The notes under the pieces: model-generated
The model's database searches: none
What the model saw: the letters and a program-made list of their open reading frames with translations, nothing else
What the model was told of the DNA's origin: nothing
Part shown: positions 13,245-20,692 of the stretch, piece after piece
Layout: each line of letters begins with the position of its first letter
Numbering within the stretch: position 1 is the stretch's first letter
Made by a program: the position numbers and the translations under genes
From: a virus
Virus record (IMG/VR): IMGVR_UViG_3300032278_000108
Span: 1-25,407 of that record
Strand: one strand, 5' to 3'
DNA: 25,407 bases

Positions 13245-13889
13245 TTAAGATACGGTATATGTTACATCAGCCCAATCACTGTCTGCACTTTTTAGTGCTT
13301 CACACTGTGCAATAGTTATACTTAAACTATCTAAAGATACGGAAGCTCCCTCAGAATTTAAAGCAAGATCACTAGAGTCTTTGGCTGATGCTGAAATAGC
13401 CATACCTAAATTTCCTAATTTTGTTTTTACTAGTCCGATGGTACTAAACGTTGGGTCATTTTCTACCCAACCTTTGATTGTTGTAATATTCCATTCACGC
13501 ATTAGTCCTACTGCTAATATTTTATGGTCTGTAAAATAACCATTACCTCTATGAGTAGGGTGTATAATATCTGCACGTACCCAAGCTTCTCCAGATGCTT
13601 CAAAACTATATACTCTTATACCCACAGCAACACCTGCTGGGTTTACTGAAATATAAGTTCTGATAATAGGTTGGTTGTTGGGCATAGTATAGCCACTTTT
13701 AATACTAGCATCTGTGCCTGTTTCATTTTGTGTTATTCTTGCAGAAAACCACTTTAAACGTTCGTCATAAGTAAATGTTCCAACTTCTGGACTTAAAGGA
13801 TAATCCTTCCAACACTCCATCCAAAATGTGTAATCGCTTTCTATCATGGGTCTATGTACCCAACTATTATTTGCTGTAACTGTAGTCAT
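13245..13889 (-). CDS. GNAT-like N-acetyltransferase in the tail operon (214 aa)
   Basis: Motif A of the GNAT fold is visible as a strand VRADIIHP (104-111) followed by THRGNGYFTDHKIL (112-125). HPxxRGxG is the acetyl-CoA pyrophosphate-binding loop, followed by a helix. The N-terminus HRPMIESDYTFWMECWKDYP is a plausible first strand and helix, and TYISVNPAGVAVGIRVY (78-94) gives central strands. The C-terminus (about 170-214) is beta-rich and not obviously GNAT. The start ATG overlaps the J stop in TAATG, so translation is probably coupled. Its substrate is unknown; it may modify a virion or host protein, or be a non-catalytic structural GNAT fold. Confidence 0.65.
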   Translation of the reverse strand: MTTVTANNSWVHRPMIESDYTFWMECWKDYPLSPEVGTFTYDERLKWFSARITQNETGTDASIKSGYTMPNNQPIIRTYISVNPAGVAVGIRVYSFEASGEAWVRADIIHPTHRGNGYFTDHKILAVGLMREWNITTIKGWVENDPTFSTIGLVKTKLGNLGMAISASAKDSSDLALNSEGASVSLDSLSITIAQCEALKSADSDWADVTYTVS

Positions 13890-16800
13890 TAGTATTTACC
13901 TCCAACTGTCCAGTCTTTGACAGTTAATAATTCATTTTCTGTTTCCACATAGATAACATCTGTTGGTTCATCTATGTACTCTTTCTTACCCTGATATTCT
14001 TCCGCTAGTATCCATTCTCCCTCAATTAAAATTGGGTGATCATTTGTTATTTCTAATTCATCTTCTAGTATGTAGTATCCTTCTCGTTGTTTATGTATTA
14101 TATATACTACTTTAGTTTTGCCTTCGGGACTATCTACTTCATCTCCTATTTTTAACCCTTCAGGTAACATAGCAGGAGTTAGACATTTACCACCACCACC
14201 ACCAGAACCTGTTAAATCAACCATAGAACAAATTAAAGTTATAGTATTACTACTTGCAGTATGAGTAACTGTTTTTGAAATATATTGTGCCGCACTATGT
14301 GTTGCTGCTGAGAAAGTCCACGCATCATTACCACTGCCAGTATTAGTTAATGCAAATCCTTCTGTTCCTGATCCAGTATTAGCTCTAACATTGGAACCAT
14401 CATTAACCCATGTATAGGTTGCCTCAAATGTTCCATCTGCTGGGTGAACTATGCTTATAGTTCCTGTAGTACTTACTCCATTCCAAGTACTACCATTATA
14501 TGAAGAAAAACTAGCTGCGGCAGCCCCTGAAGTTACTGTAATAGACCCCCATTCTAAATTTGCGTTTGCGTAATCATCTGCAGAAAATCCTGCTAGTGCT
14601 GTTATGTTAAAATCACCTGCTGAATAAGTAGTGTTTGTATCTTGAGTTGTTAATGTAACATTTCCTGCCCCATTTCTAGGTATTGTAATTGTTGTACCAC
14701 TTATAGATGGTGTTCCTATTACTACATTAGTAGGTAAGGTATAGTTATTATAACCTGAAGGATTTGAAGAATTATATGGAGTAAATCCTATTGAATCTAA
14801 GACATCGGCATTAGATAGATTAGCATTTGCATACAGAGCAGCATCATAGCCACTTAGACTAGTTATAGCGAAATCTCCTGCTGAATAAGTTGTATTTGTG
14901 TCAGTAGATGAAAAAGTTGATCCACTCAAAGTCATATTAGTTCCTGCTGAGTATGTTGTATCTTTATTTAATCCGAATTCAACCCAAGTACCACCACCAG
15001 TTGTTGTCCACAAAGTATCAGGATCTGTCCCCGTTTCTATGTATGTGGAGCCTTTTGGCTGTGTACCTGAAGGGTGCCCACTTCCTGAAGTATGAGTTGG
15101 TTCAATTACAGTATTTAAATAATCATTAGTAGTTAAATTAATTATTCCTAAACCTGAACCGCCAGGATTTATATTTAAAATACCTGGAATAGTGTAAGTT
15201 AAATCTCCTAAATAAAATTGCGCAGCAGTAAATGTCCAAGTACTACTGTCTACAGGTTTAGTTCCTATTGAGTACCAAATAGATTTACCTGAAGCAGCAG
15301 TTGGAACTGTAAGTATCCAGCTACCTGGTGTTTCATCTGTTCCCGCTGTAGGAGTACTTGGTATACTAAATCCAGTTTGTAAGTAATAAATTGTAGTAGT
15401 TCCTTTTCCTTCATTCCCCGATTTTGCTTTTGTTAACGTCTGATCTTTAGTAAAAGTAGTAAAATCATCTCCAGCCGCATTTTTACCTGAAATAGTATAT
15501 GTAATTACAAAACTATCAGTTCCATCTGCTGCCCCACTATGATTTCCAATTGTACAAGTGGTACTTTCGTCTCCTGAAGCGCTACCTTCCGTTATATTAG
15601 CAGTATTTCCTATAGCAACTGCAAATTGTCCTGCTAAAACAGTACCTGTTTGAAAAGTTAATGCTGTTTCTCCCTCGTATACTTTAATAGTAGTTCCACT
15701 ATCTGCATAAGAAGAAACAACTCCATCTTCATCAGCTGGTAATGAATGATTATCATTTGATAAAATAGCACTTACTGCAGCAATTCCTTGTTTAGATTTA
15801 GAAAAAGTTTGTATTCTAGTAAAAGCGCTAGAGACTCCTACAGGATCTTTTGCTGTTATAGTATATGTAATAGAAGCAGTATCAGCTGTCATACTACTAT
15901 GATCTGCAAATCTTCTAGAATAAGTTGAAACTGTAGAAGCTGAACCAACAGTTATATTAGTATCATCAGCTACTGCAACTACAAATTGACTATTACCTGT
16001 TCCATAAGCTAGGTGGGTTGTTCCATGCCACACATCTATATCTGTTCCTGAGCCTGTATAAGTTACTGTATCATCTGTAGCAGTAGGAAGAGTATGGGCT
16101 TCATTAGTAAGAATTGTACTAAAACCATCAAGACCTTCTTGAAGTCCAGAAGCTGTTATTTGGTCTCTTGCTAATATATCACCACTGTTACTTCCTTCTC
16201 TTATTTGTACTTCTAATTTTTCTGGCATATCAGAATATGCTGAAGGTGGTGTATAAGTATAAGTTGCAGTAGTAGTATTTTGAACACTTGAATCATTTTT
16301 ATAGAATTGATAATAAACAGTTCCAGTAGTATTCAAAGCTGTTGCAGTTACAACAGCATCTGAAGGAGAAGGAATAAGACCACTAGTATTATATTCAAAA
16401 GTTTGATCTGCCATTGTTAAATTAACAACTCGAGCATCTGTTCCTGCTGACCCATCATTTCCAGCAGCTCCATCAACTCCACCTCCACCTGCATAGTTAT
16501 TTAAAACATAAGAACTAGAAGAATTTCGTATAATTTTTGAAATTATAAAATCATTTATAAAATCTGGTCTAAAAGTGCCTTTATAAGCATATTTAGTAGT
16601 AAATGCTTTTGTTACTGCTCCAACTACTTTTAACTCAGTATTACTTACTACTTGATCTACATACCCATACCACGAACCTGTACCAAATGAAGTGCTTGCA
16701 CTATCATGTAATCTAATAAAGTCTCCTGCAGCAAAATCAGTAGTAAAAGCAGTACTAGAACCAGTTACTGTATCACTATCTAGTGTAGTTGTAATGGTCC

Positions 16801-19800
16801 CTGATGCTTGTGTTAAGCCATTAGCACTGGCCCCTACTTCCTGCCACCAAGTAAAACTTCCTGCTAATCCTGTTTGACCTTTATGATAAGTTGTATCCGT
16901 TACTTGTATAATCGCTTTCCACGGATCAGAAGCAACGGCACTAGCGTCAAATAGAGCATATCCAGTTTGTCCATCTGTTAAAGAACTAAAAGATTGTCTT
17001 CTTTGAGCATGACTTTGAGTAGCTTGAGTTACACTATATTCTCTTCCTGCAGTGTTAACTACTGTGTAAGGACTAGCAGAGAGATCCCAGTTACCTGAAG
17101 AATCTATTGTAAGTCCTGCTGATAATATACCACCAAATGTAAGTTTTTCTAAAGATTGAGATTGGCCTGTTACTGGAGCTGTTATTGTTTTTTCTAATAC
17201 GGCCCATTCTGATAGTGCCCCTCCTTCATATATAGCTCTAATTCTTACAGTATATGTTCCTGCAGGAACATTAGGTACTCTAAATGCATAAGTCTTTGCT
17301 CCTACAAATTCTCTATTAAATCCATCATTTTTGGATACAATTCCAAAATTATGTTCTATTTCAAATTGCGTTATACCTGGTGGAACTCTTTCATAATTTC
17401 GTCTTTCTTCAAAACTAACACCTGTATCATGTGCTCGTTTTGGAGATCTTAAAGCTCCTCTAGTAACTGTTAAATCATTACTACTTTTTGCAGACCAGTA
17501 TACCACTTCTTCTTGTGATGTTCCTGCTTCAATAACTCCATAGCCTGTTGCAGCAAAATCACCTGCATCTCCTACTGTAATTGTAGTTTCAGAATTATCT
17601 AGAGCTTCGTTAACGAATGTCGCATTTAAAACATTATCAGCTACCCAAGTTTCTACAGGAGTTGCCCAACTAATTAGTGCCTCTAAAGCTCCCGTTACAT
17701 CTTCTGTACTATCAGTAGTACTAAAACTAGCAGCAACAGATTGTAAATTAAAAGTTAAACTAGCAGGTGAGGGATACGAAGCATCTCTATGCATATTTAC
17801 AGGTTTCTTTAAAACAGATTCTCTAGTAGGTTCTAAAGTGTACCCTTTTTCTACAATATCGTATTTTTCGTCTCTATATTCTGCAGCTCCAATATTGAAT
17901 ACTCCTTCTCCCTGACTTTCGACTCCCATAATTCTATATTGTTTTGGGTTACCTGTAACTTCATTAGTTGAAGTAGTAGTTCTACCAGAAATTGCCCAAA
18001 CAACTTCTGAATTTGGAGCAGAAGAAAAAGCGGAACTTACAGTAATATTACTACCTGCTGCTATTGTTCCTGCTGATGTGCTAATTGTTTTAGTTTCTAC
18101 CCTTGAATTTTCACTCCAAGCTAATTCTACTTTACCATTATTTTCAGTACCACCATTAGATGCCGCATCAGAATCTTCTTTAACATTAGTAGCTTTAGCA
18201 AAAGTATTAATTGTTGCTCCACTCTCATCAAGAAGTATTAAATCACCTTTTGTATACGTAGTGCTATTTATATGTACTTTTTCTGGACTTACTAAATAAG
18301 CTCCACCTTCTGGGTATATTAAATGCAGTTTATATGTAGTACTTGAGGCTAAAGTTATTGCTCTATCTAAAGTTACTATTGTTGTACTTGTTCCTGCTTT
18401 TATTCTACCGCTAAATTGTATCGTATCTATAGTGGCGTCTTGTATATTTACAACATCACCAGGTCTTAGTATTGCAGCATTCATTCCAGTAGAAAACTTA
18501 CAAAGTTCAGTTTCTAATTTATCTGTAGTAATAGCCCATTTTCCAATTCTATTAGCTTGTCCTTGACTAGTACAACCGAAAGCTTTAAAGTCTTTTGATA
18601 CTATTCTTCCTTTTTCAATTATATTATCTACATCATCTACTATTTCAACTTTCTCTTTAAAGTTATCTTCTGGGTCCATCCACTTAACTAGGTATTGATT
18701 AGCTCTTATTCTCTCAGAAGTAGACTCATAAGAAAACTCTCCGTCTATAACATTACCCTGAGAAAAAGTATAAATAGGTTCTCTAGGTCTATCTTGAATT
18801 GCTACTAATTGACCATCCATCCAAAGAGTTATTCCTCTAAAAACTGATGCAAGATCTTTTAAAACTTTATAAGCTTCCTGAGCTTTTGTAATATAAACAT
18901 TGCATGTAAATCGAGGCTCTTGTCCCCCTTTACCATCAGGTACTAATTCATCACAATATCTTGCAATTTGATATAAAGAATATTTATCAACTAAACTTGC
19001 ATCTACAATATGTCCTAAACCATATCTAGGGTCTCGTACTAAATCATAAAATATCCACGCAGGATTATCAGTATATACAAGCGCATGATTAACACTAGTA
19101 GCAGCAAAGCTAGATACATCTCCTCTAAAATTACCATCCCAATCTTGGTAGGTTGACTCTTGGCCTCCAGTAGATACATTTCTAGCATAACTAGCTGAAT
19201 TACTACTCATTTCCTCTCTAGTTTTATAATTAGTAGGAACTTGAACTTTTTTACCTCTTATGTGATATCCTCTTTTTGGAGTAGTACTAAAATCCTTTGA
19301 GCTAAAAGATACTGCCGCATAAGCAGTATAAGGATAAGTTAGTTTATCTGTAATATGAGATTCAATATGTTTAATAATAGATTCATTGCTATGTTGATGA
19401 TGTCCCAGTGACTTCATGGGCTCATTAACTCTTTGAAATTTTAATCGCCAATTAGTAAAAGGTTTAAAATTTTGAACTGAAAATTCATACTGTTCTATAA
19501 TAGGTTTTGTAGTTCTATGAATTATAAAACCTGTCCCCATGCCTCTAGTATTATCACTAAAGTCATGAATACTAGCTGATCCTAATGCAGAATCTGATCT
19601 ACCAACTAATCTAGATGAATGATAGCTTGACCCATCTCTTGTATATTCGAAATCAACAGTTATTTCTACCCAAGAATTATGCTCATTTCCTGACTTAGTA
19701 CTTGTTGCCATAAGTCCTTGGGGTGCTTCTATAGTCCAACCAACAGCATCTGTTTCTGCAGGCTCTGTTGCTCCTATAGTTGCTGCAGTATAAGTATATG

Positions 19801-20692
19801 CAGAAGTTGTACCTGTTCCTGTTACTCCTGAAATTTGAGTTTGAGCCATTCGCTGACCCGGTGAAAGAACAAAACTTGCACTAGGTGGAGAATTACCTAT
19901 TAAACTAGTAATTGTTTGATGCTTATGCCCACTTCTAAACTCATATTGTACATTATCAAAATTTCGTTTTAGTCCAGATTTAGAAGTATTTATTGCATTA
20001 GGGTTGGCAGGACCAATAATTGTATAACCTGCTCCTGTCGTTGCACTACCTGTTATAGCTGTCACAGCGTTATCACTCATAGTTACTTGATTATTAGAAG
20101 GGTCATAAGATATAATAGTTGAAATATGATCTAGTCCCCCTGCTGCTGCCGTAACAGAAGTTACAGGAGCAACATCTACTTCTACATGTGTACTATCAGT
20201 AAACTCAGTAATCATAGTGAGTAAATCAGAACCTAATTCTTCAAAACCTGCTCCAACAATTCTAAGCATTCCTGCTCCATTTGTTTGACGAGTCTTTTTA
20301 ACCATATCAGCCGTAAAAAAGGCTGCACTAGCAACTATAGTATGGTCTCCTGCAATACAGGTAAATGTAATATCTGGATCTGAAGTAGCTCCTTGTTTAC
20401 CTGCTCCATAAATGTGAATTAGTCTTTTTGGACTACCAGTAACATCAACATTATCTAAAGCTCCATCTGATAAAGTAACAACTGCAGATGCTGCTACAGT
20501 AGTAGAAATTGTTGCAAAAGATCCTCGTTCTATTTGTGATACTCCATCTCTTAATGGAACATCATCAAAATAAATACTAGCATCTCCATTTACTAGTCCT
20601 ACTATTTCCCCTTCAGAAATAGCATCAAAAACTACTGCAGCATTAGTTTCTTTTCCAGTAAAATTTCTGTTACTTCCGTCTCCAAAATTCAT
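13889..20692 (-). CDS. J: gpJ-like central tail tip protein with C-terminal Hint domain (2267 aa)
   Basis: Central tail fibre/tip attachment protein of the lambda J family, about twice the length of lambda J. The N-terminus has AAVVFDAISEGEIVGLVNG (18-36), typical of J. The tail-hub region is seen around residues 535-690 (NPAWIFYDLVRDPRYGLG at 543-560, then QEAYKVLKDLASVFRG, RPREPIYTFSQGNVIDGEF) and continues to FNIGAAEYRDEKYDIVE (932-948). Fibronectin/Ig-like modules follow. Two tandem paralogous Ig-like units lie at about 1525-1640 and 1641-1760, ending KSKQG and KAKSG. A Gly/Thr region then carries TDTNTTYSAGDF twice. The protein ends in a GSGGGGGK linker and a 98-residue Hint domain (2170-2267). 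A Shine-Dalgarno AGGAG overlaps the upstream TAG. It probably determines host adsorption. Confidence 0.9.
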   Translation of the reverse strand: MNFGDGSNRNFTGKETNAAVVFDAISEGEIVGLVNGDASIYFDDVPLRDGVSQIERGSFATISTTVAASAVVTLSDGALDNVDVTGSPKRLIHIYGAGKQGATSDPDITFTCIAGDHTIVASAAFFTADMVKKTRQTNGAGMLRIVGAGFEELGSDLLTMITEFTDSTHVEVDVAPVTSVTAAAGGLDHISTIISYDPSNNQVTMSDNAVTAITGSATTGAGYTIIGPANPNAINTSKSGLKRNFDNVQYEFRSGHKHQTITSLIGNSPPSASFVLSPGQRMAQTQISGVTGTGTTSAYTYTAATIGATEPAETDAVGWTIEAPQGLMATSTKSGNEHNSWVEITVDFEYTRDGSSYHSSRLVGRSDSALGSASIHDFSDNTRGMGTGFIIHRTTKPIIEQYEFSVQNFKPFTNWRLKFQRVNEPMKSLGHHQHSNESIIKHIESHITDKLTYPYTAYAAVSFSSKDFSTTPKRGYHIRGKKVQVPTNYKTREEMSSNSASYARNVSTGGQESTYQDWDGNFRGDVSSFAATSVNHALVYTDNPAWIFYDLVRDPRYGLGHIVDASLVDKYSLYQIARYCDELVPDGKGGQEPRFTCNVYITKAQEAYKVLKDLASVFRGITLWMDGQLVAIQDRPREPIYTFSQGNVIDGEFSYESTSERIRANQYLVKWMDPEDNFKEKVEIVDDVDNIIEKGRIVSKDFKAFGCTSQGQANRIGKWAITTDKLETELCKFSTGMNAAILRPGDVVNIQDATIDTIQFSGRIKAGTSTTIVTLDRAITLASSTTYKLHLIYPEGGAYLVSPEKVHINSTTYTKGDLILLDESGATINTFAKATNVKEDSDAASNGGTENNGKVELAWSENSRVETKTISTSAGTIAAGSNITVSSAFSSAPNSEVVWAISGRTTTSTNEVTGNPKQYRIMGVESQGEGVFNIGAAEYRDEKYDIVEKGYTLEPTRESVLKKPVNMHRDASYPSPASLTFNLQSVAASFSTTDSTEDVTGALEALISWATPVETWVADNVLNATFVNEALDNSETTITVGDAGDFAATGYGVIEAGTSQEEVVYWSAKSSNDLTVTRGALRSPKRAHDTGVSFEERRNYERVPPGITQFEIEHNFGIVSKNDGFNREFVGAKTYAFRVPNVPAGTYTVRIRAIYEGGALSEWAVLEKTITAPVTGQSQSLEKLTFGGILSAGLTIDSSGNWDLSASPYTVVNTAGREYSVTQATQSHAQRRQSFSSLTDGQTGYALFDASAVASDPWKAIIQVTDTTYHKGQTGLAGSFTWWQEVGASANGLTQASGTITTTLDSDTVTGSSTAFTTDFAAGDFIRLHDSASTSFGTGSWYGYVDQVVSNTELKVVGAVTKAFTTKYAYKGTFRPDFINDFIISKIIRNSSSSYVLNNYAGGGGVDGAAGNDGSAGTDARVVNLTMADQTFEYNTSGLIPSPSDAVVTATALNTTGTVYYQFYKNDSSVQNTTTATYTYTPPSAYSDMPEKLEVQIREGSNSGDILARDQITASGLQEGLDGFSTILTNEAHTLPTATDDTVTYTGSGTDIDVWHGTTHLAYGTGNSQFVVAVADDTNITVGSASTVSTYSRRFADHSSMTADTASITYTITAKDPVGVSSAFTRIQTFSKSKQGIAAVSAILSNDNHSLPADEDGVVSSYADSGTTIKVYEGETALTFQTGTVLAGQFAVAIGNTANITEGSASGDESTTCTIGNHSGAADGTDSFVITYTISGKNAAGDDFTTFTKDQTLTKAKSGNEGKGTTTIYYLQTGFSIPSTPTAGTDETPGSWILTVPTAASGKSIWYSIGTKPVDSSTWTFTAAQFYLGDLTYTIPGILNINPGGSGLGIINLTTNDYLNTVIEPTHTSGSGHPSGTQPKGSTYIETGTDPDTLWTTTGGGTWVEFGLNKDTTYSAGTNMTLSGSTFSSTDTNTTYSAGDFAITSLSGYDAALYANANLSNADVLDSIGFTPYNSSNPSGYNNYTLPTNVVIGTPSISGTTITIPRNGAGNVTLTTQDTNTTYSAGDFNITALAGFSADDYANANLEWGSITVTSGAAAASFSSYNGSTWNGVSTTGTISIVHPADGTFEATYTWVNDGSNVRANTGSGTEGFALTNTGSGNDAWTFSAATHSAAQYISKTVTHTASSNTITLICSMVDLTGSGGGGGKCLTPAMLPEGLKIGDEVDSPEGKTKVVYIIHKQREGYYILEDELEITNDHPILIEGEWILAEEYQGKKEYIDEPTDVIYVETENELLTVKDWTVGGKY
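13892..14185 (-). other. Hint (intein/hedgehog-type) domain at the J C-terminus
   Basis: Residues 2170-2267 of the J-like protein. It begins with Cys2170 directly after GSGGGGGK. Block A-like features: CLTP then GLKIGDEVDSPEG. Block B-like: LEITNDHPILI with Thr2216 and His2219 (TxxH). A downstream WILAEE and VIYVETENELLTV resemble the following Hint strands. The protein ends WTVGGKY, so the C-terminal His-Asn and +1 Cys/Ser/Thr needed for splicing are absent. N-terminal cleavage or thioester transfer is the possible activity; this is inferred from the fold, not shown. Confidence 0.8.

What the first reader, a model, noticed from the sequence alone, without database searches (positions are those of the whole stretch)
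13892..14211. Hint domain capping a phage tail-tip protein behind a polyglycine linker
The J-like protein ends in a 98-residue Hint-fold domain (Cys2170, TNDH with Thr2216/His2219) directly after GSGGGGGK. Hint domains catalyse an N-to-S acyl shift at their first Cys. With no C-terminal Asn and no C-extein, full splicing is impossible, so the plausible chemistry is self-cleavage or transfer of the J protein's Gly-rich end to a nucleophile (hedgehog-like). On the host-contacting protein this could mean maturation, release, or covalent attachment to a host or virion molecule. The DNA, motifs and missing splice junction are seen; the activity is inferred.
Basis: partly seen in the sequence, partly recalled or inferred. 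Interest (0 to 1): 0.88.

Follow-up and report, generated by a model that had tools for sequence, protein, structure and literature searches.

The report
Self-cleaving cap on phage tail-tip protein
A marine-type phage's host-contacting tail-tip protein ends in a small intein-like domain that probably cuts itself off, and near relatives that lack the domain stop at exactly the predicted cut site, so it looks like a removable cap that moves between phages independently of its neighbours.

Summary
In detail: the 2267-aa J-like protein (window 13889-20692, minus strand) ends in GSGGGGGK followed by a 98-aa Hint domain (Cys2170; TNDH 2216-2219) with no C-terminal Asn and no C-extein. A Hint fold is predicted with confidence (pLDDT 88.9) and the top PDB match is the Tetrahymena Vint domain, followed by inteins and BILs. 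In 27 aligned relatives (34-95% identical), Cys1 and LEITNDHP never vary. The domain always ends its protein, and the HN splice end is replaced by [GSH]-G-x-Y. So N-terminal self-cleavage at K2169|C2170 is the best reading; activity is inferred, not shown.

New here: (1) a J homologue 94% identical in its core lacks the Hint and stops at ...HVGGGGK*, the predicted product; four others stop at ...GK*. (2) The Hint is 74-91% identical between phages whose flanking J domain and downstream GNAT gene are only 33-56% identical, so it moves independently of both flanks. (3) The same family caps three other virion-module proteins, including ones not at a tail tip. (4) Three relatives carry an extra HN-ending Hint inside the poly-Gly linker. 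Covalent attachment to the host has no support. New variant of a known kind.

The parts
13889..20692 (-). J-like (TipJ) tail-tip protein ORF, 2267 aa
   Evidence: PHROG_31 central tail fiber J 4e-145; PF13550 9.8e-23; lambda TipJ 3.5e-73
18416..18886 (-). conserved J core (PF13550 phage tail protein), residues 603-759
14210..14575 (-). terminal domain of J before the linker (residues 2040-2161), probably a beta-sandwich; homologous to the end of Hint-less J proteins
   Evidence: alignment, identities; beta-sandwich nature inferred from sequence
14186..14209 (-). linker GSGGGGGK (residues 2162-2169); predicted new C-terminus after cleavage
   Evidence: same position as the stop in Hint-less J L068 (...HVGGGGK*)
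13892..14185 (-). C-terminal Hint domain, residues 2170-2267
14183..14185 (-). Cys2170, predicted nucleophile of the N-S acyl shift; invariant 27/27
14036..14047 (-). block-B motif TNDH (Thr2216, His2219) inside invariant LEITNDHP
13892..13903 (-). C-terminal GGKY, occupying the place of the intein HN end; its codons GGAGGT form a Shine-Dalgarno-like sequence for the next gene
   Evidence: Shine-Dalgarno role inferred from sequence
13245..13889 (-). 214-aa GNAT-fold protein, start overlaps the J stop (TAATG); follows J with or without the Hint
   Evidence: AlphaFold pLDDT 84.3; Foldseek N-acetyltransferases E 8.7e-8

Best explanation
The domain is an autoprocessing Hint module of Vint / B-type-BIL character, fused to the very C-terminus of J. 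After folding, Cys2170, helped by Thr2216 and His2219, attacks the K2169 carbonyl (N-S acyl shift). With no terminal Asn and no C-extein, the thioester is resolved by water or a small thiol, releasing the 98-aa Hint and leaving J ending in ...GGGGGK, the same kind of C-terminus that Hint-less J homologues encode directly. It therefore behaves as a self-removing C-terminal cassette. Inferred role: a transient cap during J assembly, or a tolerated passenger. Shown: sequence, predicted fold, invariant motifs, domain position, Hint-less homologues with the same end, independent inheritance relative to the flanks. Inferred: chemistry, cleavage, timing, benefit.
For: Predicted Hint fold with best match Vint 8r2c, then gp41-1 intein and BIL 2lwy. 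Cys1 and LEITNDHP invariant in 27 relatives down to 34% identity while residue -1 varies across the family (K, V, I, T, D, E, N, W). HN end replaced by [GSH]GxY in the complete members; every complete member ends its protein. Purifying selection dN/dS 0.06-0.24. Hint-less J homologues stop at the equivalent residue: L068 ...LHVGGGGK* (core 94% identical), L103 ...ISGGGK*, L069/L073/L081 ...LGK*, each followed at the stop by a gene placed like the GNAT; all eight Hint-bearing J have Lys at -1. No Hint elsewhere in the Hint-less contigs tested.
Against: No activity data. The active-site distance could not be measured. The GK* end of Hint-less J overlaps the Shine-Dalgarno-like GGAGG of the next gene, so part of that match may be a DNA-level constraint; the matching position does not depend on it. 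Block-F His is also lost, so cleavage could be slow or need a trigger. The window domain alone falls just below Pfam's Vint cut-off.
Confidence: 0.62

Rival explanations
1. The Hint makes the thioester but hands J's C-terminus to another nucleophile (a lipid, sugar, protein amine or N-terminal Cys), as in hedgehog, so J is covalently attached or cross-linked.
For: Chemistry possible for any Hint with Cys1 and no Asn; the Gly-rich end is flexible; hedgehog precedent (PMC7765530, PMC7664689).
Against: 98 aa leaves no room for an adduct-recognition region (Vint profile has 166 positions). Hint-less J homologues end in a plain GGGGK*, so no attachment is needed there. The module sits on unrelated proteins.
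Confidence: 0.12
2. Catalytically silent Hint fold kept as a structural or folding cap that stays on J.
For: Activity unproven; block F and G residues degenerate.
Against: Cys1 and block-B Thr/His invariant across 27 diverse relatives; a purely structural cap would not need Cys at position 1.
Confidence: 0.15
3. Assembly chaperone: the Hint is a C-terminal trimerisation or protection cap shed after J assembles, the Hint counterpart of the autocleaved intramolecular chaperones of tailspikes and T5 fibres. This is a role compatible with the main mechanism.
For: Same position and proposed fate as phage C-terminal intramolecular chaperones, removed by autoproteolysis (PMC10579305); caps several virion-module proteins.
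Against: Very close J relatives do without it (L068); inteins and Hints are normally monomeric (general knowledge); no trimer model was run.
Confidence: 0.3
4. N-half of a split intein that trans-splices J to another protein.
For: About 100 aa with blocks A and B, like an Int-N.
Against: Longer relatives show the degenerate F/G region is present in the same chain; no HN[CST] C-half in the window; Foldseek aligns it over whole mini-inteins (TMq 0.67).
Confidence: 0.03

Closest known systems
Vint domain (PF14623; Tetrahymena structure 8r2c)
   Same: best sequence, profile and fold match; C-terminal; motifs A and B kept, intein C-end lost (PMC2362128)
   Different: Vint proteins are eukaryotic VWA-Vwaint-Vint proteins; this one is 98 aa against a 166-position profile, and sits on phage virion-module proteins
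B-type bacterial intein-like (BIL) domains
   Same: splicing motifs except the C-terminal one; N-terminal self-cleavage expected (described in PMC7765530)
   Different: known B-type BILs are in bacterial proteins; no BIL-B profile could be run here
A-type BIL / PT-HINT Hints at the ends of phage tail proteins (phage NCTB BN7874_136 and _132, Dickeya phage AD1_108, Alcaligenes phage Afa-NA1)
   Same: Cys-Hint at the C-terminus of a tail protein, after a Gly-rich linker in NCTB
   Different: those end in HN plus 7-12 residues; the window family has no HN
Phage C-terminal autocleaved intramolecular chaperones (K1F tailspike, T5 L-shaped fibre)
   Same: self-removed C-terminal domain on a host-recognition protein (PMC10579305)
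   Different: unrelated fold; cleavage after a Ser; forms homotrimers
Hedgehog Hog domain
   Same: C-terminal Hint, Cys1 thioester, no splicing
   Different: no sterol-recognition region, no sequence or fold preference for Hog

Membership tests
Hint superfamily | horseshoe Hint fold | tested here: met
   AF2 pLDDT 88.9; Foldseek hits Vint, inteins, BILs with prob about 1.00
Hint superfamily | block A Cys1 and block B TxxH | tested here: met
   invariant in 27/27
Hint superfamily | Cys1, Thr and His adjacent in space | not testable with these tools
   model coordinates not available
Vint | Pfam PF14623 curated score | tested here: inconclusive
   window 25.6 bits vs cut-off 27; relative L036 32.0 bits, over the cut-off; E=1.2e-5
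Vint | VWA-Vwaint-Vint architecture | tested here: not met
   J protein has PF13550 and no VWA; hence a Vint-like domain, not a Vint protein
B-type BIL | intein motifs without the C-terminal HN | tested here: met
   A and B present, F weak, G end [GSH]GxY
B-type BIL | match to BIL-B profile | not tested
   no such profile in the libraries used
B-type BIL | N-terminal self-cleavage | not testable with these tools
   needs protein
Intein / A-type BIL | C-terminal HN and a C-extein or C-flank | tested here: not met
   ends TVGGKY*; no complete relative has HN at this end
Hog (hedgehog) | sterol/adduct-recognition region after the Hint | tested here: not met
   protein stops at the end of the Hint
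Split intein N-half | separate C-half followed by a +1 nucleophile | tested here: not met
   none in window ORFs over 60 aa; the rest of the genome is not available

The most novel reading that the evidence does not exclude
A new class of mobile protein element: a 'terminal intein', that is, a Hint cassette of about 300 bp that inserts at stop codons rather than inside genes. It needs only N-terminal self-cleavage to restore the native host protein, and has spread across J, VrlC, fibre-like and podoviral virion-module proteins. Some J proteins also carry a second, HN-ending Hint nested in the same poly-Gly linker.
Probability: 0.22. Interest if true: 0.82.

Novelty: new variant of a known kind. 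Interest (0 to 1): 0.62.

Why it matters
If the Hint cuts at K|C, phage tail-tip maturation would include an intein-type self-cleavage not described in the papers found here, with a ready natural control (Hint-less homologues with the same end). It would show that Hint domains can behave as removable C-terminal caps that move between genes, linking inteins, BILs, Vint and hedgehog-type domains. A 98-aa N-cleaving Hint acting after a Gly-Lys end would also be a small, useful tag-removal tool.

Tried and rejected
Search of INPHARED phages with the window Hint or its T4-like relative: no match, or only a chance-level one. 84,980 prokaryote genomes: no relative confirmed, so no prophage carriers found at that sensitivity. 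Hint_2 PF13403 in the window: none. Split intein: no C-half. Host-specific attachment: rejected as the leading idea because the module is also on non-tip proteins. C-terminal GK* match as pure protein-level proof: tempered, because GGAGG there also looks like the Shine-Dalgarno of the next gene. Isolate homologues of the fibre-like carrier L012, and of the terminal J domain: none found. More J-GNAT junctions by the GNAT gene: only two already known loci. Failed calls from wrong frame or strand: 57, 60, 71, 92.

Full report
WHAT IS THERE. The window is a 25.4-kb viral contig with a lambda-like tail module on the minus strand: tape-measure end, M/L/K-like minor tail proteins, a tail assembly protein, and a 2267-aa J-like protein at 13889-20692 (PHROG_31 4e-145; PF13550 9.8e-23; lambda TipJ 3.5e-73). 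J's last 106 residues are GSGGGGGK plus 98 residues starting CLTPAM and ending TVGGKY*.

IS IT A HINT. Alone, the domain scores E=1.2e-5 against Pfam Vint but 25.6 bits, just under the 27-bit cut-off. Relatives were collected from viral contigs, and 27 sequences were aligned. Invariant: Cys1, Met6, a block-B LEITNDHP, Arg34, Trp58 (domain numbering). 23 of 27 match Vint, best 1e-8. The family profile finds the solved Vint domain 8r2c (1.6e-6) and gp41-1 intein (0.004) in the PDB. AlphaFold2 gives pLDDT 88.9, pTM 0.77; Foldseek's best matches are Vint 8r2c, gp41-1 intein, the Clostridium BIL 2lwy and Tetrahymena BIL2. The first-half active site is complete. The second half is not: the intein end HN is replaced by [G/S/H]-G-x-Y and the domain always ends the protein in complete members. 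So splicing is excluded and N-terminal cleavage is the remaining chemistry, as described for B-type BILs (PMC7765530). Selection on the domain is purifying (dN/dS 0.06-0.24).

THE CUT SITE IS THE NATURAL END OF HINT-LESS RELATIVES. A search with the J core returned 80 loci; 27 had a complete C-terminus, and only the window's own twin L067 carries the Hint. L068, 94% identical to the window in the J core, ends ...TITLAALLSQLHVGGGGK*. L103 ends ...ISGGGK*; L069, L073 and L081 end ...GNLGK* or ...GDLGK*. Most of the remaining complete ends are of other kinds. In the window the aligned position reads ...TITLICSMVDLTGSGGGGGK|CLTP. All eight Hint-bearing J proteins have Lys at -1, whereas other members of the Hint family have V, I, T, D, E, N or W there. 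In L068 and L103 the GNAT relative starts at the J stop; in L069, L073 and L081 a more divergent gene sits in the same place. Cleavage K|C would thus recreate the Hint-less protein. Caveat: the same bases (GGAGG before TAATG) look like the Shine-Dalgarno of the next gene, so the Gly-Lys identity in Hint-less J may be partly a DNA constraint; the position of the stop is the stronger argument.

THE HINT IS INHERITED INDEPENDENTLY OF ITS FLANKS. Against L003, L004, L005, L006, L007 and L008 the Hint is 74-91% identical in protein, but the J domain before it is 39-56% and the GNAT after it 33-43%, and the J core, where sampled, 43-44% (tblastn values are slightly lower). Four-fold degenerate sites differ at 5/31 (Hint) against 20/32 (GNAT) for L003 (Fisher p=2.5e-4), and 52/179 against 109/201 pooled over the six (p=9e-7; comparisons are not independent). 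L068, nearest in J core, has no Hint and a GNAT only 39% identical. So the Hint has a younger common ancestor than both neighbours. Exchange by recombination explains this; whether the cassette has its own mobility is open, and no endonuclease was seen with it.

IT IS NOT A TAIL-TIP SPECIALITY. The same Hint family ends (a) J proteins; (b) fibre-like proteins next to neck genes of T4-like phages (L009, L012, L036, L042; PHROG head-closure and adaptor neighbours); (c) VrlC/DUF4815 proteins (L018 PF16075 4.6e-59; homologues in Pelagibacter phage HTVC008M and cyanophages); (d) a protein between portal and coat genes in HMO-2011/CRP-like podoviruses (L046-L058). Cultured HMO-2011, CRP-1 and CRP-212 carry different C-termini on that protein.

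NESTED HINTS. In L004, L006 and L007 a second Hint of 142-146 aa (C...TxGHP...LVHN; PT-HINT 3.6e-9 for L007) sits inside the poly-Gly linker: GG|C...HN|GGGGGGG(Y)K|C.... It matches the window-family profile (E 5e-9 to 1.6e-7), and hhalign aligns the two groups (E 2.7e-10). Precise excision would leave the ordinary Gly linker. BIL domains lacking a +1 nucleophile mostly cleave (PMC7664689).

PRECEDENTS. Tail proteins ending in HN-type Hints occur in phage NCTB (annotated 'contains intein domain'), Dickeya phage AD1, Alcaligenes phage Afa-NA1 and, by tblastn, Erwinia jumbo phages. Literature searches found no description of such a C-terminal Hint on a phage tail protein; the library is open-access only. 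The functional analogue is the autocleaved intramolecular chaperone (PMC10579305).

MECHANISM AND CONFIDENCE. Most likely: N-S acyl shift at Cys2170, hydrolysis or thiolysis, loss of the 98-aa Hint, mature J ending GGGGGK (0.62). Role: transient cap or tolerated passenger (inferred). Hedgehog-like transfer 0.12; silent structural cap 0.15; split-intein half 0.03.

Noticed in passing
L004:2182-2607, L006:2588-3025, L007:5551-5976: Second, HN-ending Hint inserted inside the poly-Gly linker just before the terminal Hint (nested autoprocessing domains on one J protein).
   Followed up: partly
window 13245-13889: GNAT-fold gene follows J with a TAATG overlap, with or without the Hint; it could in principle acetylate J (for example its terminal Lys), untested.
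   Followed up: partly
window 13894-13903 and 14182-14194: Near-identical short direct repeats GG(T/A)GGTAAAT at both ends of the Hint cassette in the window; the downstream copy also looks like the Shine-Dalgarno of the GNAT gene. Possible recombination footprint or coincidence.
   Followed up: partly
L017:5070-5645: A second, separate Hint-like ORF (Hom_end_hint E 0.0021) lies directly after the Hint-capped protein.
   Followed up: no
L063:6273-6734 (phage NCTB BN7874_135): Free-standing small Hint protein ending LVHNKVD directly after a Hint-capped tail protein.
   Followed up: no
L147:2995-5283, L148:3001-5148, L149:1801-5412: The protein between portal and coat genes of HMO-2011-like phages has exchangeable C-terminal modules: Hint in L046-L058, different ends in HMO-2011, CRP-1 and CRP-212, the first two with a Cys.
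   Followed up: partly
L018:1963-6348: VrlC/DUF4815 protein with a Hint cap is 1461 aa, much shorter than cultured Kyanoviridae homologues (about 2000-2900 aa), as if the Hint replaced the C-terminal part.
   Followed up: no
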